Positions 1,513 through 28,813 of a DNA stretch of 33,791 bases are shown here, one piece after another. The stretch is taken from assembly GCA_020058225.1 (NCBI GenBank), contig JAGVEJ010000160.1, positions 1 through 33,791 of the forward strand, read 5' to 3'. A model generated the notes under the pieces. It was given only the letters and a program-made list of their open reading frames with translations. It searched no databases and was not told where the DNA came from. A program made the translations under genes and the position numbers. The DNA is from Candidatus Zixiibacteriota bacterium. Lineage in GTDB: Bacteria > Zixibacteria > MSB-5A5 > GN15 > PGXB01. Positions within the stretch are counted from its first letter, which is position 1. Every line of letters starts with the position of its first letter.

Positions 1513-2496
1513 ATGTCACTATTAATACCGGCTGCAAAAATCGATTCCAAATATCTTCCAATATATTTGGAATCGTTACGCCTTGATACCGTTCTCAATT
1601 TTGACCTCTTTATAAAGGTCAGCGGGGAAATGGTTCTCTATCGCTCGGCCGACCTCCCCTTTACGGAAAAAACCAAAGAAAAACTTCTGGATAATAAAGT
1701 CTCCCGTCTTTATGTCAATGCCAAGGCCAAGGCTAAATACCAAAAATATATCGAGCAAAATCTTGATAAAATCCTTCTTGATAGGCATGTTCCCGAAGAA
1801 AAAAAGGCCGGTATTTTGTATGAAACCTCAAAAGCTCTGATGAAAGATGTCTTGGATAATCCGACCTTCGGCGAAAATATCCATCGTTCGAAAAAAATGG
1901 TGGAAAACCATGTCAGTTATATCCTCAGGGGACAGGAGGCCTTTCATAATCTAATCAAGCTTAGCTCGTTTGATTATTATACCTATACTCACTCGGTAAA
2001 TGTCTGCACCTTTGCCGTGGCGTTGGCGCAACAGCTGGGGAGACACGATGAACAATATCTTCATGACCTCGGCATCGGCGCCTTATTGCATGACATCGGA
2101 AAATCAAAAATCTCTGAGAGAATCATAAACAAGCGAACCTCTCTTTCTCCCATAGAGTTTGAATTAATGAAGAAACATCCCAAATGGGGCGTGGAGATTC
2201 TTACTTCTACCGATATGATTAAATCCGCATCATATTATCCCGTGCTTCAGCATCATGAAAGAGGAACCAAAGCCGGATACCCGAACGGTCTGTCGCTTGA
2301 TGAGATGCATGAGTTCAGCCGAATTGTTTCTATTGTAGATACCTTTGATGCCATGACAACCGAGCGGGTTTATCAGGGGGCGATGGATACCTTCCCGGCG
2401 CTGAAAGTAATCTTTGCTCTCAAAGGTGATTATGACCATGATATGCTGGTAGCTTTCGCCGAGCTTATGGGTCCCTACGGTCTTAAAAGCGCCTGA
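1513..2496 (+). CDS. HD-GYP domain protein, probable c-di-GMP phosphodiesterase
   Basis: 327 aa, cytoplasmic. The N-terminal ~115 residues resemble the small DUF3391-like region often found before HD-GYP domains. The HD-GYP domain spans about residues 120-325. The metal/catalytic set is visible: His160 (YTHSVNV), the HD pair 193-194 in LLHDIGK, His247-His248 followed by E249, GYP at 255-257, and D276 in VDTFDAMTTERVY. This family hydrolyses cyclic di-GMP to pGpG or GMP. The linker between HHE and GYP reads RGTKA, a departure from the common RLDGS. There is no receiver or membrane domain, so the input signal is unknown. The ATG at 1513 has no obvious Shine-Dalgarno sequence, so initiation may be leaderless or weak. 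Confidence 0.9.
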   Translation: MSLLIPAAKIDSKYLPIYLESLRLDTVLNFDLFIKVSGEMVLYRSADLPFTEKTKEKLLDNKVSRLYVNAKAKAKYQKYIEQNLDKILLDRHVPEEKKAGILYETSKALMKDVLDNPTFGENIHRSKKMVENHVSYILRGQEAFHNLIKLSSFDYYTYTHSVNVCTFAVALAQQLGRHDEQYLHDLGIGALLHDIGKSKISERIINKRTSLSPIEFELMKKHPKWGVEILTSTDMIKSASYYPVLQHHERGTKAGYPNGLSLDEMHEFSRIVSIVDTFDAMTTERVYQGAMDTFPALKVIFALKGDYDHDMLVAFAELMGPYGLKSA

Positions 2497-2550
2497 TTAT
2501 ACCGATTCTCTGAAATATTATCGTTTTTATTGCACTCTTTCCACCCCTAA

Positions 2551-2570
2551 GGGGCTTGTTGAAAAACCCC
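2551..2570. repeat. Solo copy of the IS/MITE end motif
   Basis: GGGGCTTGTTGAAAAACCCC lies 55 bp after the HD-GYP stop. Its first 16 bases match the end of the element at 16684 and the reverse complement of the IS end at 398-414. No partner end was found within the next 120 bp. The flanking GGGG/CCCC can also fold into a small hairpin, so a weak terminator role is possible, although no T-run follows. Confidence 0.5.
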
Positions 2571-2684
2571 ATTGATCATGGGATGAAGTCGTGCTGACAC
2601 ATGGATATTCTGATTGACTTCTCTCATTATCACCATTAATTTAAAATTCAAGCCTGAATTTTATTGCGAATTGAAAATATAACA

Positions 2685-4127
2685 ATGAATCAGCGAACGA
2701 CACCGACCATTTTATTGGTTTACCCGTCAAGTTTTTATTATCCGATGGAACAGGAAAGATTTGAAATCAAATCTTCCTTACTCCTTCTGGGTTCATTTCT
2801 TGTCCAATATTTCCCCGTAATTTATGCTGATTTCGAAATCACTATTGGCCGTCCGACCGGAAATATTCAAATTAAGCGATTTGAAAGGCAGGTAAAGGCC
2901 TTTCTTGAAAATCAAAGCTATGACATTTTAGCTATATCCTGTTGGACCAGCCTTTCCTACATGGCGACAATGTCCGTTGCGAAGATTGCCAGGGAGTTAT
3001 ACCCTGAAAAACTTGTGGTGGTTGGCGGATATCACCCTTCGGCAATTCCGGAGGATTTTTTGACCGCGGATAATATAATAGATTATGTTATCAAGGGGGA
3101 GGGGGAGCTTGCTCTTATGCAAATAGCCGAAAATTATCCGACAGCAAAACGACCTTCTGAAACAAAAATCGTCGCAGGCGCTACAATTCTTCCGGAAAAT
3201 TTTATCGGGATGAATTGGGATATTGTCGAGTCATTCCTGAAAACAAATTTTCCCGCCGGCTTGCGAAGTGTGGCGCTATATCTATCGCGGGGATGTCCGT
3301 TTGACTGCTCCTTCTGCATGGAATCATTAAAAGAACGGCGATGGCACCCATATCCGCCGGAAATGGCGGTGAATGAAGTCAATTCTGCCGCAGAACAACT
3401 TAAAGTATCAGCAATCAATCTGGGAGATGCCTGCTTTGGTTTGCAATCGCGATGGCGCAAGGAGTTTTTTACACGGCTTATAGAACGGAATCCTAATTTT
3501 TGGATTACTTTTGAGACTCGTCCGGAATTATTTGATGAAGAGGATGTTAAACTACTTTCTCATCTCAAGGTGGCCATTGAGCTGGGAGTAGAGAGTTTCT
3601 CACCTTATATACTTGGCCTAATGAATAAGACTAAGAATCCTCAGAAATTCTTGGATGATTTTCGAAAAACCAGCAGTTTGTTAAATCAGTATGGCATCGT
3701 TCACATGGCCAATTTAATATTTAACCATCCCGGTGAGACAGAGCGGACCCTGCAAGAAACTTTTGCCGTGGTGGATGAGTTGATTGACATTTCAGATTCA
3801 TATTTGATTTGGGCCTGTCATGATTATATGCATTATCCGGGAAGCTTTTTGGATCGGAATAAAGAGCAGTTCGAAAAGGAATATGGCACGCGGATTCTTG
3901 TTCGGGAATGGTGGAAGGTTAACGAAGATCAGTTGGTCAACTGCCGCAAAGTGATCCCATCCTCTGGATTAAGCGATGATAAGCTGAAACTCTGGAGAAG
4001 CATGTATAAAGAACGGGAAAATCGCATCAAAAATTCCCTTCATCCCGACGCTTTTCAATTCGCGGCGGAGACTTATTCTCCCTCATGGCGCCGTGATCCT
4101 CGATACCGGCCGACGACGTCCAAATAG
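2685..4127 (+). CDS. B12-binding-domain radical SAM protein
   Basis: About 480 aa from the ATG at 2685; an in-frame TTG at 2664 would add seven residues, and neither start has a clear ribosome site. Residues ~1-160 have the Rossmann-like pattern of the cobalamin-binding domain of class B radical SAM enzymes (ILAISCWTSL, then VVVGGYHPSAIPEDF, then IKGEGELAL). Residues ~190-400 form the radical SAM barrel with the cluster motif C204-x3-C208-x2-C211 (CPFDCSFC), which ligates a 4Fe-4S cluster and cleaves S-adenosylmethionine. GxESFSPYIL and NLIFNHPGE are typical of the group. The cobalamin ligand motif DxHxxG is not visible, as in many members. The substrate is unknown, and the gene stands alone between an HD-GYP gene and a convergent peptidase operon. 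Confidence 0.85.
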   Translation: MNQRTTPTILLVYPSSFYYPMEQERFEIKSSLLLLGSFLVQYFPVIYADFEITIGRPTGNIQIKRFERQVKAFLENQSYDILAISCWTSLSYMATMSVAKIARELYPEKLVVVGGYHPSAIPEDFLTADNIIDYVIKGEGELALMQIAENYPTAKRPSETKIVAGATILPENFIGMNWDIVESFLKTNFPAGLRSVALYLSRGCPFDCSFCMESLKERRWHPYPPEMAVNEVNSAAEQLKVSAINLGDACFGLQSRWRKEFFTRLIERNPNFWITFETRPELFDEEDVKLLSHLKVAIELGVESFSPYILGLMNKTKNPQKFLDDFRKTSSLLNQYGIVHMANLIFNHPGETERTLQETFAVVDELIDISDSYLIWACHDYMHYPGSFLDRNKEQFEKEYGTRILVREWWKVNEDQLVNCRKVIPSSGLSDDKLKLWRSMYKERENRIKNSLHPDAFQFAAETYSPSWRRDPRYRPTTSK

Positions 4128-4194
4128 ATTCGATTGATAAACCACTGGCAGGCGAAAGAAGACTGCTTATAGGGCTTTTTGATATAAGTGATTA

Positions 4195-4214
4195 GGGCGC
4201 ACAATTGTGCGCCC
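4195..4214. terminator. Perfect 20-bp palindrome between convergent genes
   Basis: GGGCGCACAATTGTGCGCCC is fully self-complementary and lies between the ends of the radical SAM gene (+, ends 4127) and the M16 operon (-, ends 4250). It may act as a transcript-end hairpin in both directions. No T-run follows on either strand, so this is a terminator-like structure rather than a canonical terminator. Confidence 0.4.
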
Positions 4215-4249
4215 ATGCAATTGTCGGATAAAATAATTTTAGAAAACCG

Positions 4250-5704
4250 TTATTCAATCACTGGGGGAGCGATCTGAATGTTCGTTACCTTTCCAAATTC
4301 ATCCAATGGTTTTTCAAATGTCTCCGGCTTTCCCACAATGATATAAGTCAGCTTGTCAGGCTGAAGATATTTCTGGGCAACCCTTTTTATATCATCGCGG
4401 GTTATTTTTCGGAAGCGGTCGAAATGCCCGTTATAATAGTCCATTGGGTATCCATCGTATTCAAGATTCGTTAATGCCGTTACAATTTTATGCGGGGAAT
4501 CAAATTCAAATACCAACCTATTGATAGTGGCATCGCGGGCATCTTCGAGTTCGTCTTCAGTAACGCTTTCATCCCGAATTCGTTTAATCTCGTCGGTTAT
4601 CAATTTGGTTGCCTTATAGGCGGTAGCGCTTTTGGTCTGGCACTCAGCGCCGAAAGCGCCAAGGTCGCGGCCGCCGGTATAGAAACTGGAGCTGACATGA
4701 TAAGCCAAACCCTCATCGGAACGAACACGCGATGTCAATCTCGAGGTGAATGAACCGCCGCCAAGGATATAGTTGACCAGCTGAATGGCATATCTATCCG
4801 GATTATCCCTTTTAATTCCAAGATGACCGATTTTCATATAGGCTTGATTGATATCTTTCCATACTTGATAAACCCCGGGATGATATTCTGTTTTGACCTC
4901 CGGATACGGCGGCAGGGGCTGATCTGATTTTTGCCAGTCGCCAAAATATTTTTTGATTTTTTCTATTATACCGGCTTTGTCGAAATCGCCGCTGATTGCA
5001 ATCATAATATTATTTGGCACAAAATACCTTTGATGGTAATCAATCAAGTCCTGAGGGGTAATTCCTTTGACCGATTCCCATTCAAGAATGCGGCCGTAGG
5101 GATGATCTCCATAAATGGTGTTGGCAAAATATCTTCCAACTACGCTATTGGGGCTGTCATCCCTTCTCTTAATGCCATTTTTAATATCAGCTTTGGCAAG
5201 GTCCAATTTGTCTTGCGGGAAGGCGGGATTACGAATCAAATCGGCGAATAATTGCAGGCCAAGGTCAATATCTTTCGACATGACACTCAACGAAGCCGAG
5301 CCTCTTTCATCGCTAATCCATGTTTCCAGCGAGCCGCCCATAAATTCCATGATAATATTCAGGGAATCGCCCGTGATAGTTTTTGAGCCGCCGGTACGCA
5401 GAACAGTACCGACTATTCCGGATAAACCATTCTTTTCGAAAGGGTCAAAGATGCCACCGCAACGAATAGTGGCGCTAAGGTTGAATATGGGGAGTTTGTT
5501 ACTCTGATAAAGGTACAGGACTATGCCATTGTCAATCGTAACCCTTTCCACTTCTTTGCCGACCTCGGGAATGGCCAATTCAATTTTCCCAATGGTGAGG
5601 GAATCAATAATTTTTGAGCCGGGGGATTTTGCCATCTCGGTCTGGCCAAAAGCAAAGCCTGTAAGTATCATGATGATTAATAAATAGCAAATTATCTTCT
5701 TCAT
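4250..5704 (-). CDS. M16-family peptidase homologue lacking the zinc motif (non-catalytic subunit)
   Basis: 484 aa with an N-terminal signal peptide (hydrophobic core at 4-18, likely cut after the FAFG segment). Two M16 halves are visible: the N-terminal lobe starts at VTIDNGIVLYL, and the C-terminal lobe contains GGGSFTSRLTSRVRSDEGLAY near 315-335, the Arg/Tyr-type motif conserved in inactive partners. Where active members carry HxxEH, this protein has GLSGIVGTVL near 93-102, so the zinc ligands are gone. In the PqqL/mitochondrial-processing-peptidase type of M16B pairs, one subunit binds zinc and the other helps hold the substrate. This matches the gene just upstream, which ends 14 bp before this ATG; AAGGAGGTG lies in the gap. 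A periplasmic or secreted heterodimer is inferred. Confidence 0.9.
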   Translation of the reverse strand: MKKIICYLLIIMILTGFAFGQTEMAKSPGSKIIDSLTIGKIELAIPEVGKEVERVTIDNGIVLYLYQSNKLPIFNLSATIRCGGIFDPFEKNGLSGIVGTVLRTGGSKTITGDSLNIIMEFMGGSLETWISDERGSASLSVMSKDIDLGLQLFADLIRNPAFPQDKLDLAKADIKNGIKRRDDSPNSVVGRYFANTIYGDHPYGRILEWESVKGITPQDLIDYHQRYFVPNNIMIAISGDFDKAGIIEKIKKYFGDWQKSDQPLPPYPEVKTEYHPGVYQVWKDINQAYMKIGHLGIKRDNPDRYAIQLVNYILGGGSFTSRLTSRVRSDEGLAYHVSSSFYTGGRDLGAFGAECQTKSATAYKATKLITDEIKRIRDESVTEDELEDARDATINRLVFEFDSPHKIVTALTNLEYDGYPMDYYNGHFDRFRKITRDDIKRVAQKYLQPDKLTYIIVGKPETFEKPLDEFGKVTNIQIAPPVIE

Positions 5705-5718
5705 TGTTGGTCACCTCC

Positions 5719-7242
5719 TTAGCCTTCCTTGGGGTAAGCGGGTTGGCTCTTTGACTCTTCGGTTTTTACGATATATGCGACCGACCTATTTTTCTTGATA
5801 AGATATTTATTGACCACTCGCATGATATCATCAGCGGTGACCTTTTTCACCGCCATCTGATGGTCAATAAAATGATGCCAGTTACCTGTAACGGCTTCAC
5901 TGCCGGCCAATCTCCAACAGAGCCCCATATTCGATTCGAGTGAGCGAATAAAAGAAGCATCAACCTGATTGCGCACCTTCTCCAGTTCCCAATCGGTTAC
6001 CGATTCCGACTTAAGTCGATCGATTTCGGCATAAATGGCAGTTTCCAGTTCCGTGATAGAATGATCTGGCATTGGGGTTGCGGAACAAACAAAAGTTCCG
6101 GGATATCGGGCATTTTCGGCGTATGCCCAGACATCGCCGAGTTTTTTCACTTTGATATTCTTGTAAAAGCGACTGGTCCGGCCATTAGAGAGAATATTGG
6201 CGGCGACTTCAAGAGCAGGCAAATCCGGATGGCCAATTTGGGGAATTTTCCAAGCAATAAAAGCCATCGGATTTGAGGTATGCTCTATCTCGATGCGACG
6301 TTCTCCCTCTTGGGGGGCGTCGCGGGTTATGACAGGCGGAGGAAGCGGTTGGGCCGGGATTTTTCCAAAGTTCTCTTCGCAGATTTTGAATACCTCCTCG
6401 GCGTTTACATCGCCCACTATCACCGCTACGGCATTGGAAGGAGAATAATGCGATTTGAAATACGCTTCAACTTCCTCACGCGTGACTGTTTGAATATCGC
6501 TCATCCAACCAAGGACAGGCCATTTATAAGGGGTTGACCAGTAGGTCGTCGCACTGAGCGCCTCATCGAGTTTGCCCCATGGGTTATTTTCGCTGAGACG
6601 CCTTTCCTCCATGACCACATCGCGTTCAGAATAGAATTCACGAAGAATAAGATTGGCCAATCGGTCGGCTTCGAGAAAAGCCCATAGTCCAAGTCTATTC
6701 TTTGGCAATGATACATAATATTGGGTTCCATCATTTCCGGTGGAAGCATTTAATGAGGTGCCGCCATTGTTCAAATAAGTATCCCAGAGTTCATCCTTGA
6801 CAACATATTTTTTTTGCTCGGATTGCACATCTGCCATTTGCTGTCTCAATTCTTTAAGGCGAGTGGAATCTTGGAGATTTAACGGATTAGATAGTTTTTC
6901 CTGTTCACTTCTAAACAGGTGGGCCAGCGAATCGATTTTATGCATTAGCGGGGCTTCCGCCTTATAATTATTGGTACCTATAATTTTGGTGCCTTTGAAC
7001 AGCATATGCTCCAAAAGATGAGAAATACCGGTGATTCCAGGGCGCTCATCGACAGAACCGGTGTTGAAACGAATCATTCCGGAGAAAACCGGCGCGGAAT
7101 GGTTCTCCAACACCAGAACTCTCATCCCATTGGAAAGGGTCTGCTTTTTTGCATCGAGCTTGATTTCACCGGTTTGAGCCTGTACCGTGAAAGCGGCAAT
7201 GAGCAAAATGGCGGCAAGCGGAAGAAATAATCGCTTGTGCAT
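5719..7242 (-). CDS. M16-family zinc metallopeptidase (catalytic subunit)
   Basis: 507 aa with a signal peptide (LFLPLAAILLIAAFTVQAQ, probable cleavage after VQAQ). The inverted zinc motif HLLEH is at residues 75-79, with the third-ligand region ERDVVMEE at 206-213. Family members degrade or process unfolded peptides inside a clamshell of two M16 units; here the second unit is supplied by the downstream gene. Between the zinc motif and the distal Glu there are about 57 extra residues (roughly 97-155), charged and likely helical or coiled, compared with the spacing in insulin-degrading enzyme. The gene has a GGAGGAG ribosome site before the ATG and a plausible promoter at 7311-7338. The length is that of one full M16B subunit plus the insertion. 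Confidence 0.92.
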   Translation of the reverse strand: MHKRLFLPLAAILLIAAFTVQAQTGEIKLDAKKQTLSNGMRVLVLENHSAPVFSGMIRFNTGSVDERPGITGISHLLEHMLFKGTKIIGTNNYKAEAPLMHKIDSLAHLFRSEQEKLSNPLNLQDSTRLKELRQQMADVQSEQKKYVVKDELWDTYLNNGGTSLNASTGNDGTQYYVSLPKNRLGLWAFLEADRLANLILREFYSERDVVMEERRLSENNPWGKLDEALSATTYWSTPYKWPVLGWMSDIQTVTREEVEAYFKSHYSPSNAVAVIVGDVNAEEVFKICEENFGKIPAQPLPPPVITRDAPQEGERRIEIEHTSNPMAFIAWKIPQIGHPDLPALEVAANILSNGRTSRFYKNIKVKKLGDVWAYAENARYPGTFVCSATPMPDHSITELETAIYAEIDRLKSESVTDWELEKVRNQVDASFIRSLESNMGLCWRLAGSEAVTGNWHHFIDHQMAVKKVTADDIMRVVNKYLIKKNRSVAYIVKTEESKSQPAYPKEG

Positions 7243-9554: not shown

Positions 9555-12323
9555 ATGGTAAAAATGAGGAAATTGATTAATTTTATTCACTTCCCAGTCT
9601 TAATTCTCGGCATATCAATTGTGGCTTTTGCTCAAGACAATAGGGATTATGATTCCCGAATAGTTCAGTCACCGATTATGATTCAAAAATGTGAAACAGC
9701 ATTCCAGAAGGATCTTTGCCGCGGTGCCATGATTCGCAGTAATATTGAAGAGAAACCGGGACCCGGTGTAAATAAGATCCTCTATGCAGTAGTCGATGAA
9801 GATCCGGGCACATTTTTGCGCATGGAACCGGGTGGGAATGAATGGCTTGAGATTGAATTTCAAGGTGCATGGTATTGGGTAAATCAGATTGAAATTCAAT
9901 ATCGAGGAAATAATAATTTTAAGTTGGCGACATTCAGTACAAAGGGCTCGGCGCAGGATCTAATTCCACTGTCAATCGAGGATAGAGAATTGGAGAATGC
10001 GAATTTCAGCAAATTTATCGAAATTGAGCCCATCAAGGCAAAAGGTTTAAGATTTTCAATGCCGGCAGATGGAAAAGGCGCTAAGGGGGTCGATATTTAT
10101 GAAATAAAAGCATGGTTCTACTTTCCCGATCCCGACAAGGTCAAAAGGGGAATTGATGATCCCGAAAACTGGCTTCTTTGCGAAAATATCGACGGCATGG
10201 GCGCTGATGATATGAAGCCATTCTGGACCAAAATCTCGGGTCTTGGGGGATGGTGTCCCAACTCCTCTCATTGGTGCCATTGGTGGAATGGGTCAGCTGC
10301 TTGGGCAGGTGATTTCAAGGGTGCGGTCGTGGGGGGGGCGGAAGATAACCATACTGGGGCTTGGACGGGGATGGACTATCACGATATGGCGGCGATCGCT
10401 CTCCACGGATACCCGTGCGGCATTGTTTTCCCCAACGGCCCGCCACCATTGAGCCCGGTTCTTGTACCAAGTGACATTTTGTCGGCATGGGGGGAGAGGG
10501 ACAATGAATGGTTTGTCGCTCTGAGCTGTAGTCCCTATGCTTGGCCAAATTGCCCATGGAGTTGGGCAGCAGGGTTTAATGGTCAGCATCTGCAATGTGG
10601 ATTCACGACCACAGCCTATGCGACTGGTGGCGCTTTCCTTGGTGGCTTTGCGGAATTGATGATAAGAAGAAATATGTGGGATCCGGCTCTGCCAATAACA
10701 ATGTCATGGTTTTTGGCAAGGGCGCTCTGGCAACCGGCAGGCACTTGTGTGCTCGTACTGGCCGATGATTGGGCAGGGTATTCTGATTATCTCTGGACGC
10801 AGGGATGGGTTTCTCCCGACCCCTCGCCCCCGCTGGGAATCGTCTGGGCGATGTGGGACCCTCCCTTTAATGCAAAGGAATCGGAAACACAAACCTATCC
10901 TCCTCCTTTAACTCAACAGGAAGAATATTCGATTGCGAAAATAGGATCCCCTACGGAATCAGTCAACTTCTCCGCAAAAGGCTCAAACGGCATTCCAGTC
11001 AGAACTTCCCGGCATCTTATCAAAAAATCTTTCCCTGACAGCATGATGGTATATCAACTCCAGGCAATCAATATCGATAGTGGAGTCATCGCGGAGCTTG
11101 CAAGCGATATATGTGCCAGAGAAGGTGTTCTCTGTAATCCCGACATAGGTCAAGATGAGGAAGGAAATTGGTGGGCAAGTGATTCAAGTTCTATACTGTG
11201 GGGTAATCCCGCGATTGGATTTCTGCAGTTTGCCAATTCGGATAAGTATCTCGCCAAACTGAATTCGCCGCCTTCGCTCCCGCCGGCCATAACCGCTTTA
11301 GTGGAAGCTATCGACAGACTTCAAGAAATGGGCCTTAGTCGAGTGGACGCATGTTCGGCGTCAGTATCATTTAACATCCAATCAGCCTACGACCTCGATC
11401 TCTTTCAACTGCTTCCAGATTCCTCTTTCGACCTATCCATTAACACTGAATTCAATCGGTGTGTCGATGGTTATAATGTTTATGGACCCGGAGGGCACAT
11501 TTCAATGACCTTTGGCGAGAATCTCGAAATGCAGCATTTTACCTGCGGAGGATGGCAAAACCTCATTAATCCTGTCAAAGAGCGGATCATCACTGTCACT
11601 GAAGCTATCAATCTGCTGAATAGTATGGGTGAAGATGCTACTATTGGAGGGATCCCTCCCGAATTCGATACCTTGCTTATTGATGATGATAGCACCGAAG
11701 CGGCATATTACAACTCGAATGGCGACTGGGATACCGATATTCTCGAACCAATTTATAAATTTAAATGCTACGCCGTCAGCTCTTTTGACACGGTGCCATG
11801 CGTCATATTTGTTCCCGCACGGGCTTCTTTACTACGTGGCATTATCAATGAACCAAAAGACAACAGCTCATTTAAGAAAGAAATTACTGTAACATTTGAC
11901 GCGACCGCAATGGGTGGAGTTGCTCCTTATGCCTATAAATGGTATTCCGATGTCGATGGCTATTTGGGAAGCGGCGCTTCTCTCGCCATTAATCATCTAT
12001 CAGTTAAGAAAAAAGACACGGTTGTGTTAGCGCACACGATTACGCTTGAAGTAATTGATAATGTTGGTATGATCGACAGCATGCGGATTTCACTAACGAT
12101 TCTACCCTGCTGTGATCTGGCCGGCGACGCCAGCAATAATGGAAATGTCAATGTCATAGATGTTACTTATTTAATTAATTACTTATATAAAGGGGGTGCG
12201 AAGCCCATCTGCTCTGCTGAAGGCGACGCTAATGGCAACGGCATTATCAACGTACAGGATATAACATCTTTGATCAATTATCTCTATAAGCATGGTGCGG
12301 CACCCATTTGCCGTCCGGAATAG
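9555..12323 (+). CDS. Secreted dockerin-tagged protein with discoidin-like and HG/C (caspase-like?) regions
   Basis: 922 aa, with ATG preceded by AGGAGGGG. Signal peptide at 1-26 (core FPVLILGISIVAFA). Residues ~60-190 have the strand pattern of an F5/8-type (discoidin) jelly roll, ending in VDIYEIKAWF. Residues ~200-425 are Trp-rich and contain IALHG (His284) and, 41 residues later, VALSC (Cys325), then a GxHLxxGFTTT-like segment. This layout resembles DUF6345-type domains as I remember them and, loosely, clan-CD peptidases. Residues ~770-850 look PKD/Ig-like (VAPYAYKWYSDVDG). The last 71 residues are a type-I dockerin: two calcium-loop repeats (GDASNNGNVN and GDANGNGIIN), each followed by LINYLYK. 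Dockerins bind cohesins, so surface anchoring or complex assembly is inferred. Catalysis is unproven. Confidence 0.85.
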   Translation: MVKMRKLINFIHFPVLILGISIVAFAQDNRDYDSRIVQSPIMIQKCETAFQKDLCRGAMIRSNIEEKPGPGVNKILYAVVDEDPGTFLRMEPGGNEWLEIEFQGAWYWVNQIEIQYRGNNNFKLATFSTKGSAQDLIPLSIEDRELENANFSKFIEIEPIKAKGLRFSMPADGKGAKGVDIYEIKAWFYFPDPDKVKRGIDDPENWLLCENIDGMGADDMKPFWTKISGLGGWCPNSSHWCHWWNGSAAWAGDFKGAVVGGAEDNHTGAWTGMDYHDMAAIALHGYPCGIVFPNGPPPLSPVLVPSDILSAWGERDNEWFVALSCSPYAWPNCPWSWAAGFNGQHLQCGFTTTAYATGGAFLGGFAELMIRRNMWDPALPITMSWFLARALWQPAGTCVLVLADDWAGYSDYLWTQGWVSPDPSPPLGIVWAMWDPPFNAKESETQTYPPPLTQQEEYSIAKIGSPTESVNFSAKGSNGIPVRTSRHLIKKSFPDSMMVYQLQAINIDSGVIAELASDICAREGVLCNPDIGQDEEGNWWASDSSSILWGNPAIGFLQFANSDKYLAKLNSPPSLPPAITALVEAIDRLQEMGLSRVDACSASVSFNIQSAYDLDLFQLLPDSSFDLSINTEFNRCVDGYNVYGPGGHISMTFGENLEMQHFTCGGWQNLINPVKERIITVTEAINLLNSMGEDATIGGIPPEFDTLLIDDDSTEAAYYNSNGDWDTDILEPIYKFKCYAVSSFDTVPCVIFVPARASLLRGIINEPKDNSSFKKEITVTFDATAMGGVAPYAYKWYSDVDGYLGSGASLAINHLSVKKKDTVVLAHTITLEVIDNVGMIDSMRISLTILPCCDLAGDASNNGNVNVIDVTYLINYLYKGGAKPICSAEGDANGNGIINVQDITSLINYLYKHGAAPICRPE

Positions 12324-12397
12324 GCAAACATCAGACGTCTTAAGATAATAACATATATGAATATCGTCTTGCCCCGAAAATGAATCGATGAACAGGA

Positions 12398-12422
12398 AGG
12401 CCGCCCTATTTCAGGGCGGCCT
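12398..12422. terminator. Strong hairpin between convergent genes
   Basis: AGGCCGCCCT and AGGGCGGCCT form a perfect 10-bp GC-rich stem around the loop ATTTC. It sits 75 bp after the dockerin protein stop and 93 bp before the end of the minus-strand TPM gene. No T-run follows on either strand, so termination efficiency is uncertain. Confidence 0.55.
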
Positions 12423-12514
12423 GAAATATAGACTTTCACACTCCTTCAAAATTCCGATATTTTCAATAATAGGCCATTTACCGCCTAAGCCGGAATCGCG
12501 GCAATCAGGGGTTT

Positions 12515-13147
12515 TCAGTCGATAATTTTTGGTTTGTCGGGCAGTTCGTTGATGTCGCCGCTTTCGCGGGGAAAATTGCGAGCAAGTTCAACCGCAATCG
12601 TTTCAATCGCCTGAATGATTCCTTCTGCATGTTTGCCCTGTTTCATGGCATTGACTATTGTTGCATGTGGAGCGTGCCAGTAGTCGGGCGGCACTTTGGA
12701 AGCGATACCTTTGTCAGCCACAATCGCGGCCTGCTCTTCTTCGAGCGATACAAAAATCAGAACACCCGTAAGCGCGCGTGCAGGCGTCATCTGGCGAAAA
12801 ATGCCCAGCGAACGTTTCCAAACAACCTTGCGCCGGCGTTCACTGCGCCTGAGCAACCGCCCCCATCCGAAATAAGCGACCACAAATCCGACCGCTCCCC
12901 ACAGGATTCCCTGTGTGGCATTGTAGTAAACCCCCCAGCTAACTTCGCGCGTAAGGTAAAGAGCCGCAAGCATGCAGATGAGAGTGAACCCCAGCGAATA
13001 AACTAACCGCTCAACGTTCCAGCTCCGGGAATGGGAAGCCAACTCGACCACTATCTCGCCGCTGGTTGACAGTTCGGCCTTTTTCACCGTCGCCTCGATA
13101 GCATCGAAGTCAGCTTTAGAAAAATACTTATCAATAAGTGATGCCAT
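12515..13147 (-). CDS. TPM-domain membrane protein (second TPM paralogue)
   Basis: 210 aa with ATG preceded by AGGAGGG. The TPM (DUF477) pattern begins at FSKADFDAIEATVKKAE and STSGEIVVEL. It is then interrupted by two likely membrane segments (about 50-66 and 79-97) and a basic RRSERRRK stretch, and resumes at LTGVLIFVSLEEEQAAIVADKGI and GIIQAIETIAVELARNF. TPM domains occur beside LemA genes in many bacteria and are thought to act at the membrane; their biochemical role is not settled. It is the last gene of a three-gene operon, 14 bp after the first TPM gene. The TPM fold split by a transmembrane hairpin is seen in other small members. Confidence 0.8.
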   Translation of the reverse strand: MASLIDKYFSKADFDAIEATVKKAELSTSGEIVVELASHSRSWNVERLVYSLGFTLICMLAALYLTREVSWGVYYNATQGILWGAVGFVVAYFGWGRLLRRSERRRKVVWKRSLGIFRQMTPARALTGVLIFVSLEEEQAAIVADKGIASKVPPDYWHAPHATIVNAMKQGKHAEGIIQAIETIAVELARNFPRESGDINELPDKPKIID

Positions 13148-13161
13148 ATTCTATAACCCTC

Positions 13162-13896
13162 CTACCAGCCACCGCTTGCGCCACCGCCGCCGGATGACCC
13201 GCCGCCGAAACTGAAACCACCTCCGCCCCCTCTTCCGCCACTGAATGAGCCGCCGCCAAATCCACTGCTAAACGGCCCACCAAATCTTCGACCAGTCAAA
13301 CGACGTCGGCGAAGAATCGCTGTCAGCAAGAAGAGGACGAACAATCCAAGCGGCATTAGGACTGGTATCCCATCGTGATTTCCATTCTTCGGCGGGGGCG
13401 GGTTGTACTCCCCACCAATTGCCTGCGCTATTCCGTCGAGCACCGCGTTTACACCGGCGACGTAGTCACCTTTGCGAAAATGCTGTGCCATCGGTGAATT
13501 GCGGTTCACAAGCCGGCCGCTTTCAATATCAGTCAACTTCCCTTCAAGACCATACCCGACTTCAACCCGGGCTTCTCTTTCCTGTATCGCTACCAGAAAC
13601 AGGACGCCATTGTCATTATCTTTCTGACCAATACCCCAAGCTTTGAATAAATCATGCGCGTAATCCTCGATCGATTGATCGCCAATTGTCGGTACAATCA
13701 ACACGCCGATCTCACTGCCCGTTTGAGCACGATAAGCGCTGGCTTTGGATTCAAGTTGCTGGATATCACTTTGGCTGAGTATGTTGGCCCGGTCGGTGAC
13801 AAGACCTTCATAATCAGGCAACTGCGAACTGGCCAGAAGACCGGCCGCCACCAGCAATACGATAATTACAGGAAAGGTCTTTCTCACTCGGATCAA
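13162..13896 (-). CDS. TPM-domain (YgcG-like) exported protein with Gly-rich tail
   Basis: 244 aa. Start TTG at 13896 follows the LemA stop by five bases; an in-frame GTG three codons later is an alternative. There is a signal peptide (FPVIIVLLVAAGLLASS), then a TPM domain at about residues 28-160 (YEGLVTDRANILSQ, GSEIGVLIVPTI, DNGVLFLVAIQEREARVEVGYGLEG, a typical series). One transmembrane segment lies near 176-190, followed by an RRRR stop-transfer signal, and the last ~45 residues are Gly/Ser/Phe-rich. This is the canonical layout of YgcG/TPM proteins partnered with LemA. A role in envelope assembly or stress is suggested by family context only. Confidence 0.88.
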   Translation of the reverse strand: MIRVRKTFPVIIVLLVAAGLLASSQLPDYEGLVTDRANILSQSDIQQLESKASAYRAQTGSEIGVLIVPTIGDQSIEDYAHDLFKAWGIGQKDNDNGVLFLVAIQEREARVEVGYGLEGKLTDIESGRLVNRNSPMAQHFRKGDYVAGVNAVLDGIAQAIGGEYNPPPPKNGNHDGIPVLMPLGLFVLFLLTAILRRRRLTGRRFGGPFSSGFGGGSFSGGRGGGGGFSFGGGSSGGGGASGGW

Positions 13897-13901
13897 TCCG
13901 C

Positions 13902-14519
13902 CTACTTATTGTTGAAGGCGTCTTTCACGCTGGGGGCTGTCTGAGCGTCGGCCTGCGCCGCAAAAAACTGCTTCTCATACGGGAAACCGAAGATTGCGCC
14001 CGCGATAAGCGCCTTGACACCCTTCTGACGGAAGGTGTTGTAATCACGGACCGATTCGTTGTAAGAGCGCCGTTCCTGGGTAATGCGATTCTCGGTTCCT
14101 TCGAGCTGAGTCAGCAGATCGGAGTACAGCTGGTCCCCTTTGATCTGTGGGTACTGCTCAACGACCACGTTAATAAACGAATTCAACTGACGTGAAAGCT
14201 GGCTCGCCAGCGAATCCAGAAGCGCCGGGTCCTTGCTCCCCAGAGCAGTCTCAGCGGATCCCTTAAGATCGATTACACGCTGACGCATAGCGATCACTTC
14301 GGTCAGGGTCGCCTGTTGCCTCTGCATGAAATTATCCACGCTTGCCACCAGATTCGGAACGAGATCAAACCGACGCTGGTAAACGTTCTGCACCTGCGCC
14401 CATTTTTCATCGACCCCCTGGGAACGATCGATCAATCCACCGCGACCGGACCAAATCCAGCCGCCGATAATGAGGACAAGCAGAAAAATAACGCCTATAA
14501 CAATACCGACAATTCTCAT
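13902..14519 (-). CDS. lemA: LemA family protein
   Basis: 205 aa with ATG preceded by AAGGAG. One N-terminal membrane segment (IVGIVIGVIFLLVLIIGGWIW) precedes the conserved LemA helical bundle: VDEKWAQVQNVYQRRFDLVPNLV, then QRQQATLTEVIAMR, SRQLNSFINVVVEQYPQIKGDQ and NRITQERRSYNESVRDYN. The family is membrane-anchored with a long coiled helical domain facing the periplasm; its precise function is unknown. It heads an operon with two TPM genes, a widely conserved grouping. The three genes are somewhat more GC-rich than the AT-rich genes after 16 kb. Confidence 0.93.
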   Translation of the reverse strand: MRIVGIVIGVIFLLVLIIGGWIWSGRGGLIDRSQGVDEKWAQVQNVYQRRFDLVPNLVASVDNFMQRQQATLTEVIAMRQRVIDLKGSAETALGSKDPALLDSLASQLSRQLNSFINVVVEQYPQIKGDQLYSDLLTQLEGTENRITQERRSYNESVRDYNTFRQKGVKALIAGAIFGFPYEKQFFAAQADAQTAPSVKDAFNNK

Positions 14520-15311
14520 CGTTGTCTCCTTTCACACCTCCACTTACGAGACGAGAGCCCTCTTTGTTACAAAAATCGGCAGTCTCCTAATGACAGGCCG
14601 TCTGGAACACTCATCTGGGAGTTTATATACATGGTTAAATGCCCAGAGCGCAATAAGAAAATATGATTCAATATATTTCATGGCACACCCAGAGTCTATC
14701 TGTTAGTTTCTCTCGAGGCAGTTTGCAACATAGCAACTACTTATCGGCCGCATCCCGTCACAGATTCCCGGCGACTTCAAAGTTGTCAATATTGCTCCAA
14801 GGCCTTCCCATCCTCTATTCGTGGCGGACCTGTTAACGTCCATGGGAATGTTTAAAAGTGTGTGTCCTTGGATTCAGGCGACGTTTTCGATTACCCGGTT
14901 GCGATTTGCGCCTTGCGGCATCAGCCATTGATATCAGGTCCGACGGGAGTCGGACCTCTCCTTCTATCGGCCATCAGAACGGGCGGGTTAAAACAAACTG
15001 CCATTTATTTATTAATGAGGATATCAATAGCTTAATCCGTCATTTCTCATGACTATTGCCGATTCGCGCATAGTATAATTATAATCGAACCTTGTGCTGG
15101 AGGACCGTAAAAGCCTGCCAAAAATGAAACCGGATCGCTTTCGCTCAATCATAGCGAAACGTGAGTTTGAAAGTTCTGGGTATTAACAAGTTAACCCACT
15201 CAATCTTCCAATAACAAGAACAAGGCTAAATTGTGAATTCCAGCCTAAACGTTCTGAGTTCTGGACGGTAAATGGCCGCTTTTTATTTGAGTTTGAGCTG
15301 AAGAAATCGAA
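14520..15311. other. Gene-free stretch, 792 bp, with one perfect hairpin
   Basis: No frame with convincing codon use was found; a 64-codon frame at 14858-15052 runs through a hairpin and has no ribosome site. AGGTCCGAC-GGGA-GTCGGACCT at 14936-14957 is a perfect 9-bp stem with a four-base loop. A weaker TTCGCT/AGCGAA hairpin lies near 15137-15161. The stretch upstream of LemA probably contains its promoter, but no clear pair of hexamers was identified. Confidence 0.5.
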
Positions 15312-24982: not shown

Positions 24983-25153
24983 TAATCAAGAGCCGGACAT
25001 ATAGTATATTTTTAATATGGATAATTATTGGTTAGGGGTGTGACGACTTTTTCTAAATATTTGAATTTGTTGGTGGGGGAAATTAGTCATAAGCTATAAT
25101 ACTTCTTAAATACTGCTATTAGCTATAGCCTAAAATTACTATTGGAGGGAGTT

Positions 25154-28100
25154 ATGTTAAAGTTATTAACTATCTTACTTCTTCTCAGTTTTGCTTTCAC
25201 TTTGGTGGCTTTCGCCATCGATAAGCCGACCAGCGAAAAAATCAAAAACCGGCAAACCATTGATGCCCTACCCCGTACTCCGACCATAGATGAGATGGGG
25301 ATGCCTGCCAAATCTTATCCCATCGATAATCAAGACCTGCAATTGAATTATGATGGTAAAGCGTCACTCTCACCGGGACGTCTGGTTGGATTAACGACTC
25401 GCGATATGCAAAATCGCGGCAGAATGAATAGGACTATCGATTGGCGGGGCCCGGATAAATATATTTATTTTACATGGACACACAAATCAGATTTTAACTA
25501 TCTGGGCATGTTGCGAACCCGCTACCAAATCTATGATCCCTCTTACGGAGATTTCCTATGCAATCCTGGCGGGGTCGAATTACACTCTCTTGCGGATCAT
25601 TCTGCATATCCGGCGCTGAGTATCATGCCGGATGGCAAAGCTATCATCGCCAATCATTTTGATGTTTCCGACGATTTTGATTATAAACCACGCTTATGGT
25701 ATAAATCAAGTACGCAGATATGCGATTTCCCCTATGACTGCGATATTCCTGATTCGCTCCTAAATTATAATTTATACGATGATACCATGTTTTTATTCCC
25801 CTCAATGGAATGTCAAATTTATGGCACCGACACGGTTACGCATCTATTTGCCCAACAATCTGCCGCTGATGGCCGTAATATTCTCCGCTATTTCAGAAAA
25901 GTTGGGGGGGCTTTGACATGCGCCTGGGATTGCCCGCCGATGACAATTGATACTGTTTTCGACCCAAATTATTCCCAAACAGTTGTGGCATCAAACCTTA
26001 CCGACGATGTTGCCCTTGTCTGGACGGCTGAATTGCCATCTATCCCCGGCGGAAACGAATCGGTCAACCGCGACCGAGCCCGATGCAATGATATTTACTA
26101 TATGAGATCCGATAATATGGGATCGACCTGGAATGATAAAGTTAATGTCACCCAATCTGATTCATCCAAAGTCGGCTGGCGCGCCTATCAGGACTTAAGC
26201 GCTATATTCTCCCTCCTTAATGATCCCAGCCCTCTCCATATTGTCTGGAATGCCCGCGAATTTTCACCCTATCCCGCCCCGAATGGCTCTTTCCCTCATT
26301 ATTATGGCTCGCGACTGTTTCATTGGTGCAGTGATTATCCATCTGTCATCAATACAATCAAAGATGCCAACTGGGACATTCCTGATTATGGATGCTATGG
26401 CGATCCCTATAATGATATGAGCATGGTCAAACCGCAGATTTCGATATGTGATAACAAGCTTTATGTCGTTTTTGTGCAGTTTAATGATATTGAAAATGGC
26501 ATTTGGGATGATTGCCATAATGCAAACTGGACACACTATCGCCATTCTGGTACCGCCAATGGAGAGCTATATGTTTCGGTCTCTGACAATGATGGAGCAA
26601 GTTGGGATATCGCTCAAAATCTTACCAACTCCTTCACCTCGCGGTGCGATTCTGAGACCGGGCCTAATGGGGAATGCGATGCCGACCATTGGCCTTCAAT
26701 GAGTCGCTACGGTATGGACACTAATCTTATTTTTCCGGGAGTTCCGATAGTTGACCCGTCGGGAGGATATACGGGTAATTACTATCTTGATATTTTTTAT
26801 GTCAATGACAAATACCCGGGTTCATGTATCCTTAATGCAGGAGTCTGGACCACCAATCCGCTAAAATGGTTCCGGTTGCCATGCTATGAGCCGGGGAATT
26901 CATCAGAACTCTGTATTTTCCCATCTGATTTTACTCCTGAAGGCGGCGGTCCCATTTACATTGAGCCGGGAGCGGAACTTGATACCATTGTTACGCTTGA
27001 GAATTACGGGAACGCCCCTATGACTTTTAATAGCGTCAATGCAGTCAAACTAACCGGCGCCGAATATGATTGGCTCGGCATTTACAATGTTCCGGCGACC
27101 ATTCTTGCGGGCGACATTGATGATATGCATATTCAACTGAATAAGGCTGGCATTGTCAAAACTCCGATGGCCCTTGATGGGATAATTGTATTTGAAAAAG
27201 ATACCAAGGGACTCTGGGATACATTAAAAATCCACATTATGGTTGCTGACACCGTCTATATGCCTGAATGGGCGTCAATTAGAACATCAAGCATCCGTCT
27301 GACATTGAATAATGCCGGCAATATAGGGAAAGTCGGTGAAGAGCCGGGCCATAATATGAACTTTCTCAATGATTGCGACACGACTCTTAATACCGCCCCG
27401 GGAGTTGATGATAATTCCGAATTTTATTTGTTCGATGCCAGCCCATTTATTCTGCGGGCGAGCGGCGGCGATACAATATTAAATTCATATTTCTACGACG
27501 CCAATTGGCTTAAAAATGACGGATTCCGACCGCTGGAAAAGTTGATTGTCGATTCCAGTTTTGCCGACTATCAGTTTCTAAGTACCGGCAAGTATAGCAC
27601 GCCGGATATGGTTATATCAATGGAATGTAATTACTGGGCTCCAATGTCTGCGGAAAGTTCGGAATTTATTATTCAGGAAATTAGGGTTTTCAATGATGGC
27701 GATTCAACTCTGCATGGCATATTTGTCGGCAATATGATGGATTGGGATATTCCCTCGGATACTTCGGTTGATAATGGTTCCGGAATTGATGGTCCCCGGC
27801 AATTGATGTATTGTTATGGAGCTGAGTATGGGCCAGATCCCATTCCAAATAATGATTGTATCCTGGCCAATCAGCGGTACGGCGGTTATGCTTTCCATTA
27901 TGGCTACAAATTGCCTTTCTCGAATCCTACTACCGATAGCATTGGGTCTATTAAATATGCTTTCACCGACTACGTTAATAGCTGGTTGCGCCCCACGTCA
28001 AACTTCGTACCGCAGGAGCTTTATGATAGAATTAATCCCAATTTGGGATTTGAAGTATGGACTATTGACAGCCTTGCCGACATCTTCATGGTTTATGCAT

Positions 28101-28813
28101 TTGGGAAATTCGATATTCCGGCGGAGGGCGGGTTGGTCTTTGTAAATATTTTGGCCTCTGAATATGATGGCGGTTTATCCGGTTTACGGCAGACCATTGA
28201 TAAGGCCAGACAATGGATAGCCAATCGCCCGGGATTAATCGGTCGATCTCAATTTTTCGACCTGCGGCCATTGACTATTGTCGCCTATTCGCCGGTTAAT
28301 CTGAAAATAACTGATCCCGTGGGTGATTACATTGCCAGAGACCCCTATGATGTATTGACGCAGACTATCTTCCCAGCCGATTATTTCGAAAATCCGCCTA
28401 ATTACATCGATTCCGTGATCATCTATTTCCCCATTGAAGGTGATTATATAATAGAAGTCGTCGCTGAAGATGATCCACCCCCTGGGGCAACTTATACCAT
28501 CGGCATTCGCATTGATGGCACCGAACAGGCGATTATGACACTTGAAGCCGATGTTCCAGCCGCTGGCATGGTTGATTCCATTATTTATGTTGTTGAGGAA
28601 GAATGGCACTTTATCAACGGTGACGCCAATGATAATGGCCTCGTCAATATTCAGGACATAACTTTCTTGATCAATTATCTCTATAAACAGGGTACGGCGC
28701 CATATCCTGTTATTGCCGGTGATGCCAACTGCGATGGCACAGTGAATATAAAGGACATAACTTATCTAATCAATTACCTTTACAAGCAAGGCCCTGCCCC
28801 ATGCCAACAATAA
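25154..28813 (+). CDS. Secreted Asp-box (BNR) propeller protein with C-terminal dockerin
   Basis: 1219 aa from ATG 25154; the GGAGGG ribosome site at 25144-25149 lies inside the longer TTG-started frame, so the ATG is correct. Signal peptide MLKLLTILLLLSFAFTLVAFA. Residues ~90-590 have two Asp-boxes (SDNMGSTW at 319-326, SDNDGASW at 477-484), suggesting a sialidase-like beta-propeller, though no sialidase catalytic set was identified. An Ig-like segment (ELDTIVTLENYGNAPMTF) follows near 610-650, then a long unassigned region to ~1145. The last ~68 residues are a type-I dockerin with two calcium loops (GDANDNGLVN, GDANCDGTVN), each followed by LINYLYKQG. Anchoring through a cohesin elsewhere in the genome is inferred. 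Confidence 0.88.
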   Translation: MLKLLTILLLLSFAFTLVAFAIDKPTSEKIKNRQTIDALPRTPTIDEMGMPAKSYPIDNQDLQLNYDGKASLSPGRLVGLTTRDMQNRGRMNRTIDWRGPDKYIYFTWTHKSDFNYLGMLRTRYQIYDPSYGDFLCNPGGVELHSLADHSAYPALSIMPDGKAIIANHFDVSDDFDYKPRLWYKSSTQICDFPYDCDIPDSLLNYNLYDDTMFLFPSMECQIYGTDTVTHLFAQQSAADGRNILRYFRKVGGALTCAWDCPPMTIDTVFDPNYSQTVVASNLTDDVALVWTAELPSIPGGNESVNRDRARCNDIYYMRSDNMGSTWNDKVNVTQSDSSKVGWRAYQDLSAIFSLLNDPSPLHIVWNAREFSPYPAPNGSFPHYYGSRLFHWCSDYPSVINTIKDANWDIPDYGCYGDPYNDMSMVKPQISICDNKLYVVFVQFNDIENGIWDDCHNANWTHYRHSGTANGELYVSVSDNDGASWDIAQNLTNSFTSRCDSETGPNGECDADHWPSMSRYGMDTNLIFPGVPIVDPSGGYTGNYYLDIFYVNDKYPGSCILNAGVWTTNPLKWFRLPCYEPGNSSELCIFPSDFTPEGGGPIYIEPGAELDTIVTLENYGNAPMTFNSVNAVKLTGAEYDWLGIYNVPATILAGDIDDMHIQLNKAGIVKTPMALDGIIVFEKDTKGLWDTLKIHIMVADTVYMPEWASIRTSSIRLTLNNAGNIGKVGEEPGHNMNFLNDCDTTLNTAPGVDDNSEFYLFDASPFILRASGGDTILNSYFYDANWLKNDGFRPLEKLIVDSSFADYQFLSTGKYSTPDMVISMECNYWAPMSAESSEFIIQEIRVFNDGDSTLHGIFVGNMMDWDIPSDTSVDNGSGIDGPRQLMYCYGAEYGPDPIPNNDCILANQRYGGYAFHYGYKLPFSNPTTDSIGSIKYAFTDYVNSWLRPTSNFVPQELYDRINPNLGFEVWTIDSLADIFMVYAFGKFDIPAEGGLVFVNILASEYDGGLSGLRQTIDKARQWIANRPGLIGRSQFFDLRPLTIVAYSPVNLKITDPVGDYIARDPYDVLTQTIFPADYFENPPNYIDSVIIYFPIEGDYIIEVVAEDDPPPGATYTIGIRIDGTEQAIMTLEADVPAAGMVDSIIYVVEEEWHFINGDANDNGLVNIQDITFLINYLYKQGTAPYPVIAGDANCDGTVNIKDITYLINYLYKQGPAPCQQ

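What the first reader, a model, noticed from the sequence alone, without database searches (positions are those of the whole stretch)
10404..10529. Possible caspase-like His/Cys pair in a dockerin-tagged secreted protein
His284 in IALHG and Cys325 in VALSC each follow a hydrophobic strand, 41 residues apart. This is the arrangement of clan-CD enzymes (caspases, gingipains, clostripain). The surrounding Trp-rich domain resembles DUF6345-type sequences from memory. If active, this would be a surface protease or related hydrolase carried on a dockerin, combined with a discoidin-like carbohydrate-binding module.
Basis: partly seen in the sequence, partly recalled or inferred. Interest (0 to 1): 0.6.

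Follow-up and report, generated by a model that had tools for sequence, protein, structure and literature searches.

The report
Dockerin-tagged caspase-like (DUF6345) secreted protein
A secreted bacterial protein built to dock onto a surface scaffold carries a domain of unknown function that turns out to be a distant relative of caspase-type enzymes, with the two would-be catalytic residues kept in nearly every relative examined, so it is probably an undescribed kind of extracellular cysteine peptidase.

Summary
His284 (10404-10406) and Cys325 (10527-10529) lie in a 922-aa secreted ORF (9555-12323 +) of a Candidatus Zixiibacteriota genome, in Pfam DUF6345 (E=3.9e-19), with a C-terminal dockerin. 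The bare motif is not rare (14% of shuffles of this protein). The evidence is conservation: across 33 DUF6345 domains from several phyla, His284 and its Gly are kept in all (one row is probably misaligned) and Cys325 in 32.

Profile-profile comparison relates DUF6345 to clan-CD families: Peptidase_C14 (E=3.9e-6) and CHAT (8e-4), not Lactamase_B (0.58). No shuffle of 400 per family reached the C14 or CHAT score. Of 489 background ORFs scored, 38 of the top 40 are clan-CD domain matches. The His and Cys align with the catalytic dyad.

AlphaFold failed (pLDDT 31-36, four permitted rows), so the fold is not shown.

New here: a roughly 260-aa companion module related to FTP/PepSY propeptides occurs with DUF6345 in either domain order (E=3e-31), suggesting a built-in chaperone or inhibitor. 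I read the protein as a scaffold-docked, propeptide-controlled caspase-like cysteine peptidase. Activity and specificity are untested.

The parts
9555..12323 (+). 922-aa ORF, whole protein: signal peptide, F5/8C-like domain, DUF6345, FTP/PepSY-like module, PKD/SprB-like domain, dockerin
9555..9632 (+). putative Sec signal peptide (residues 1-26, ...VAFA|QDN)
   Evidence: read from the sequence; no signal-peptide program was run
9783..10103 (+). discoidin / F5-F8 type C-like domain (residues about 77-183)
   Evidence: PF00754 E=0.0019, 18.7 bits, below cut-off, nearly full profile length
10137..10874 (+). DUF6345 caspase-like domain (residues about 195-440; Pfam match 243-433)
   Evidence: PF19872 E=3.9e-19; profile relation to C14 and CHAT
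10404..10406 (+). His284, predicted catalytic His, followed by invariant Gly285
   Evidence: 33/33 homologues; aligns with the catalytic His of C14, CHAT and C25
10527..10529 (+). Cys325, predicted catalytic nucleophile
   Evidence: 32/33 homologues; aligns with the catalytic Cys of CHAT and C25, and of C14 in the low-threshold alignment
10587..10589 (+). His345 of GxH, a second near-invariant His, role unknown
   Evidence: 32/33 homologues, Arg in L015
11031..11819 (+). companion module (residues about 493-755)
   Evidence: shared with homologues in which it precedes DUF6345, profile E=3e-31
11436..11714 (+). FTP/PepSY propeptide-like core (residues about 628-720)
   Evidence: E=7.6e-5, score 44.9 against a maximum of 22.3 in 400 shuffles; weak Pfam FTP hit in homologue L015
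11820..12104 (+). PKD/Ig/SprB-like beta domain (residues about 756-850)
   Evidence: SprB E=0.02-0.06 in this protein; weak SprB, PKD or Ig hits in homologues
12120..12305 (+). type I dockerin (residues 856-917, two repeats)
   Evidence: PF00404 E=1.1e-9; the same dockerin type at dozens of places in this genome

Best explanation
In this protein it is exported by Sec (signal read from sequence), kept folded or inactive by a linked FTP/PepSY-type propeptide module (inferred), and attached by its dockerin to cohesin-bearing proteins outside the cell (inferred; cohesins are encoded in the genome). After activation, Cys325 acts as nucleophile and His284 as general base or acid to cleave a peptide or related amide bond. 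Shown: sequence anatomy, family membership, invariance of the dyad, profile relation to C14 and CHAT, and the companion module's relation to FTP/PepSY. Inferred: fold, activity, inhibition, docking and substrate.
For: Pfam DUF6345 and Dockerin_1 above their cut-offs. His284-Gly285 and Cys325 conserved in 33, 33 and 32 of 33 domains from several phyla. DUF6345 against Peptidase_C14: E=3.9e-6, probability 87%, 0 of 400 shuffles reach the score, and the score rises to 50.6 when the window protein and its closest relative are left out. Against CHAT: E=7.9e-4, 0 of 400 shuffles. Lactamase_B control E=0.58. Of 489 ORFs scored against DUF6345, the top 25 come from C14 loci and 38 of the top 40 are C14, C25 or CHAT domain matches. 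Dyads superpose. An adjacent Gly and a spacing of about 40-50 are normal for clan CD (caspase-7 144/186, PmC11 133/179, MARTX-CPD 91/140; PMC4357240). FTP/PepSY relation. Cohesins in the genome; dockerin-tagged C25 peptidases in the same genome.
Against: No confident structure. No PDB relative by sequence. The C25 comparison does not exceed block shuffles (46 of 200 reach it). The window's own subfamily pair (WIN plus L013) scores only 14.9 against C14, so the link runs through the family. The metacaspase S1 Asp two residues before the Cys is Leu here. Activity is unknown, and at least one homologue (L040) lacks the Cys.
Confidence: 0.72

Rival explanations
1. Caspase-like fold without peptidase activity: the dyad is kept for binding, or for another thiol reaction such as transpeptidation, amidation or other amide hydrolysis.
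For: A second near-invariant His345 and many invariant Trp residues are not typical clan-CD features; L040 has lost the Cys. Presumably inactive pseudo-orthocaspases are known in bacteria (PMC6426788 abstract).
Against: Both dyad residues are kept in nearly all members of very divergent lineages, the usual sign of catalysis; the domain recurs with a propeptide-like module.
Confidence: 0.17
2. Autoprocessing domain: the dyad cuts its own chain, for example between DUF6345 and the companion module, to release dockerin-borne parts, and has no external substrate.
For: Autoprocessing is common in clan CD (PMC4357240); linkage to a propeptide-like module in either order.
Against: Some homologues are single-domain proteins of about 250-300 aa (L022, L023, L041) with nothing else to cut; no conserved cleavage site was identified.
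Confidence: 0.2
3. DUF6345 is unrelated to clan CD, and the HG/C resemblance is convergence or chance.
For: The bare motif appears in 14% of shuffled versions of this protein; no confident model.
Against: Conservation; C14 and CHAT profile scores beyond all shuffles; ORF ranking.
Confidence: 0.08

Closest known systems
Pfam PF19872 DUF6345
   Same: The domain is a member, 69.4 bits against a cut-off of 26.9; His, Gly and Cys conserved
   Different: The family has no assigned function; no paper in the held library mentions it
Peptidase_C14 / orthocaspases (clan CD)
   Same: His-Gly then Cys in the same order, the N-terminal GV..DY.G....L...DA......GW/GF pattern, profile E=3.9e-6
   Different: Pfam C14 does not match this protein; the S1 Asp two before the Cys is Leu here; a second conserved His and Trp-rich segments; a linked companion module
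CHAT domain (PF12770)
   Same: Profile E=7.9e-4; THG and SACE dyad motifs aligned with this domain's His and Cys
   Different: CHAT is typically intracellular and TPR-linked (general knowledge); here secreted and dockerin-linked
Gingipains (Peptidase_C25)
   Same: Secreted clan-CD enzymes; GHG and SC motifs align; gingipain precursors carry a propeptide of about 200 residues (PMC3677877 abstract); dockerin-tagged C25 proteins in this genome
   Different: Profile similarity does not exceed block shuffles; the companion module here resembles FTP/PepSY
FTP-PepSY propeptides of M4/M36-type metallopeptidases
   Same: The companion core matches at E=7.6e-5, beyond 400 shuffles
   Different: Attached to a presumed cysteine peptidase, on either side of it, and below Pfam cut-offs

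Membership tests
Pfam DUF6345 (PF19872) | Score above the curated cut-off | tested here: met
   69.4 against 26.9 bits
Clan CD cysteine peptidases | Catalytic His then Cys, conserved across the family | tested here: met
   H 33/33, C 32/33
Clan CD cysteine peptidases | Gly adjacent to the catalytic His | tested here: met
   Gly285 33/33; stated as structurally conserved in all families in PMC4357240
Clan CD cysteine peptidases | Profile-level homology to established clan-CD families, beyond controls | tested here: met
   C14 and CHAT beyond all shuffles; C25 not beyond block shuffles; Lactamase_B negative
Clan CD cysteine peptidases | Caspase-haemoglobinase alpha/beta/alpha fold with the dyad at the ends of neighbouring strands | tested here: inconclusive
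   AlphaFold pLDDT 31.5 and 35.8
Clan CD cysteine peptidases | Thiol-dependent peptidase activity | not testable with these tools
   needs purified protein
Peptidase_C14 / orthocaspase | Match to Pfam PF00656 | tested here: not met
   no C14 hit at E<=1
Peptidase_C14 / orthocaspase | Acidic S1 residue two before the catalytic Cys (metacaspase type, from general knowledge) | tested here: not met
   Leu323 here; Asp in 6 of 33 homologues
Type I dockerin | Score above the curated cut-off, two repeats | tested here: met
   38.7 against 22.9 bits
Type I dockerin | Cohesin partner encoded in the same genome | tested here: met
   three of four cohesin hits over cut-off; binding itself untested
FTP/PepSY propeptide | Score above the Pfam cut-off | tested here: not met
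   no hit in this protein; 15.3 against 21 bits in L015
FTP/PepSY propeptide | Profile-level homology beyond controls | tested here: met
   E=7.6e-5, 0 of 400 shuffles reach it
F5/8 type C (discoidin) domain | Score above the Pfam cut-off | tested here: inconclusive
   18.7 against 28.2 bits over nearly the whole profile

The most novel reading that the evidence does not exclude
DUF6345 is a new family of secreted clan-CD peptidases with a thermolysin-type (FTP/PepSY) companion found on either side of it; in Zixiibacteriota it is tagged with dockerins, alongside dockerin-tagged gingipain-like C25 proteins, giving scaffold-bound protease assemblies outside the cellulose context.
Probability: 0.45. 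Interest if true: 0.65.

Novelty: new variant of a known kind. Interest (0 to 1): 0.52.

Why it matters
It would give a likely enzymatic function to a domain of unknown function found in several bacterial phyla and in Methanosarcina. It would also point to a regulator module shared between metallopeptidases and caspase-like peptidases, and to dockerin-cohesin assemblies built around proteolysis in an uncultivated phylum. All of this is testable with one purified domain and two point mutants.

Tried and rejected
PDB sequence searches with the protein and with profiles of the domains: no meaningful hit. Genome-contig scans found only three Zixiibacteriota loci; viral-contig scans found none. The plasmid search found one Deinococcus homologue. 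The C25 comparison was dropped as independent evidence because block shuffles reach it. A defence role was considered: no PADLOC hit. A conserved operon was considered: no window neighbour is shared near four homologues in the phylum (L200-L203) or one outside it (L204). A weak profile match between the companion module and DUF6345 (E=6e-4) lies in 24 columns at the domain boundary, where the two extracts overlap, and was set aside.

Full report
Observation. ORF 9555-12323 (+) encodes 922 residues. His284 is encoded at 10404-10406 and Cys325 at 10527-10529, exactly as stated. The N-terminus reads as a Sec signal peptide ending ...VAFA (seen in the sequence; no program was run). Pfam finds DUF6345 at 243-433 (E=3.9e-19) and Dockerin_1 at 856-910 (E=1.1e-9). 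The N-terminal part alone matches F5_F8_type_C at E=0.0019, below the cut-off but over almost the whole profile. The bare motif (hydrophobic run, HG, gap, hydrophobic run, C) is weak evidence: it occurs in 289 of 2000 shuffles of this protein.

Source. Three loci of the same phylum in the named collection are Candidatus Zixiibacteriota. The window is a whole 33,791-base contig of a 2.9-Mb assembly. The dockerin region matches some 60 places in this genome, and four cohesin matches are present, three over cut-off. DUF6345 occurs once in this genome and in 7 of 133 genomes of the phylum, in two genomes of a second phylum, in 18 of 301 genomes of a third, in further single genomes, in Methanosarcina acetivorans (control) and on a Deinococcus plasmid.

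Conservation. In an alignment of 33 domains, His284 and Gly285 are present in all, Cys325 in 32, Trp337 and His345 in 32, and Gly349 in all. Among Asp, Glu, His and Cys columns of the window domain, only D274, H284, C325, H345 and D411 exceed 85%. Many rows are close relatives; by eye there are about 16 independent lineages. Row L040 has lost the Cys, and its His is probably misaligned. The His-Cys spacing runs from 32 to 65, and is 41 here. In clan CD the published dyads are 42 (caspase-7), 46 (PmC11) and 49 (MARTX-CPD) residues apart, and a Gly next to the His is structurally conserved in all families (PMC4357240).

Relation to clan CD. Alignments of clan-CD families and of one control family were built from related genomes and compared by hhalign. 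DUF6345 against Peptidase_C14 gives E=3.9e-6, probability 87%. The score is 46.0, against maxima of 19.9 in 200 column shuffles and 38.8 in 200 block shuffles, and it rises to 50.6 without the window protein and its closest relative. Against CHAT: E=7.9e-4, score 33.6, maxima 18.5 and 24.5. Against C25: E=0.013, but 46 of 200 block shuffles reach it, so it is not independent evidence. Against Lactamase_B: E=0.58. CHAT against C25, both clan CD, gives only E=0.0045, so DUF6345 lies as near to the clan as its members lie to each other here. In the CHAT and C25 alignments His284 and Cys325 fall on HG and on the catalytic Cys; in the C14 alignment the confident part ends at HG, and the Cys pair appears only at a low posterior threshold. 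When 489 ORFs from fetched loci were scored one by one against the DUF6345 profile, the top 25 came from C14 loci, and 38 of the top 40 were matches within C14, C25 or CHAT domains. The background is small and enriched in these families, but 133 ORFs from Lactamase_B loci and 82 from FTP loci gave none in the top 40.

Structure. They decide nothing, and no fold search was made.

Companion module. Residues about 493-755 match no Pfam family over cut-off. The same module plus a PKD-like domain follows DUF6345 in Zixiibacteriota and in the second phylum, but precedes it in the third phylum and in Deinococcus; the two sets match at E=3e-31 over 342 columns. Its core matches FTP/PepSY propeptides at E=7.6e-5, score 44.9 against a maximum of 22.3 in 400 shuffles; the CHAT, C14, C25 and Lactamase_B controls give E of 0.28-0.84. 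L015 shows a weak direct Pfam FTP hit. A module kept beside the enzyme in both orders suggests an intramolecular chaperone or inhibitor (inference).

Mechanism. I read the protein as a secreted, propeptide-controlled, scaffold-docked cysteine peptidase: His284 activates Cys325, Gly285 helps form the oxyanion site, the FTP/PepSY-like part is displaced or cut, and the dockerin ties the enzyme to cohesin proteins. Only the sequence relations are shown. Specificity cannot be given: the Asp two residues before the Cys, which in metacaspases contributes to Arg/Lys preference (general knowledge), is present in 6 of 33 homologues but is Leu here. A parallel exists in the same genome: two C25 matches lie in the same long open frames as dockerins (contig 83, 1602 aa; contig 245, 1651 aa).

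Membership. The protein is a DUF6345 member and carries a type I dockerin. It is not filed as Peptidase_C14, because Pfam C14 does not match and the S1 Asp is missing. It works like a clan-CD enzyme in the sense that the dyad, the adjacent Gly and the profile relation are present, while fold and activity remain untested.

Novelty. No paper in the held library mentions DUF6345. Whether Pfam or MEROPS already places it in clan CD could not be checked here. I rate it a new variant of a known kind.

Noticed in passing
25142-28813 (+): Second dockerin protein in the window: about 1100 residues with no Pfam domain apart from the dockerin; contains Asp-box-like motifs (SDNMGSTW, SDNDGASW) as in sialidase-type beta-propellers.
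   Followed up: partly
L139 (own genome contig 76, about 4965-6707, - strand): One open frame (780 aa) carries both a cohesin-like match and a dockerin, so it could link docked proteins in chains.
   Followed up: no
own genome contigs 83 (1556-5623) and 245 (10780-14928): Gingipain-type C25 peptidase and dockerin in the same long open frames: dockerin-tagged clan-CD peptidases may be a theme of this genome.
   Followed up: partly
L040: DUF6345 homologue that has lost the Cys, possibly a pseudo-enzyme.
   Followed up: no
window 10587-10589: His345 in GxH, 32 of 33 conserved, has no obvious counterpart in clan-CD enzymes and may lie near the active site.
   Followed up: no
5719-7242 (-): M16 (insulinase-type) peptidase gene; the ORF next to it at 4250-5704 (-) has a similar length but was not scanned.
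   Followed up: no
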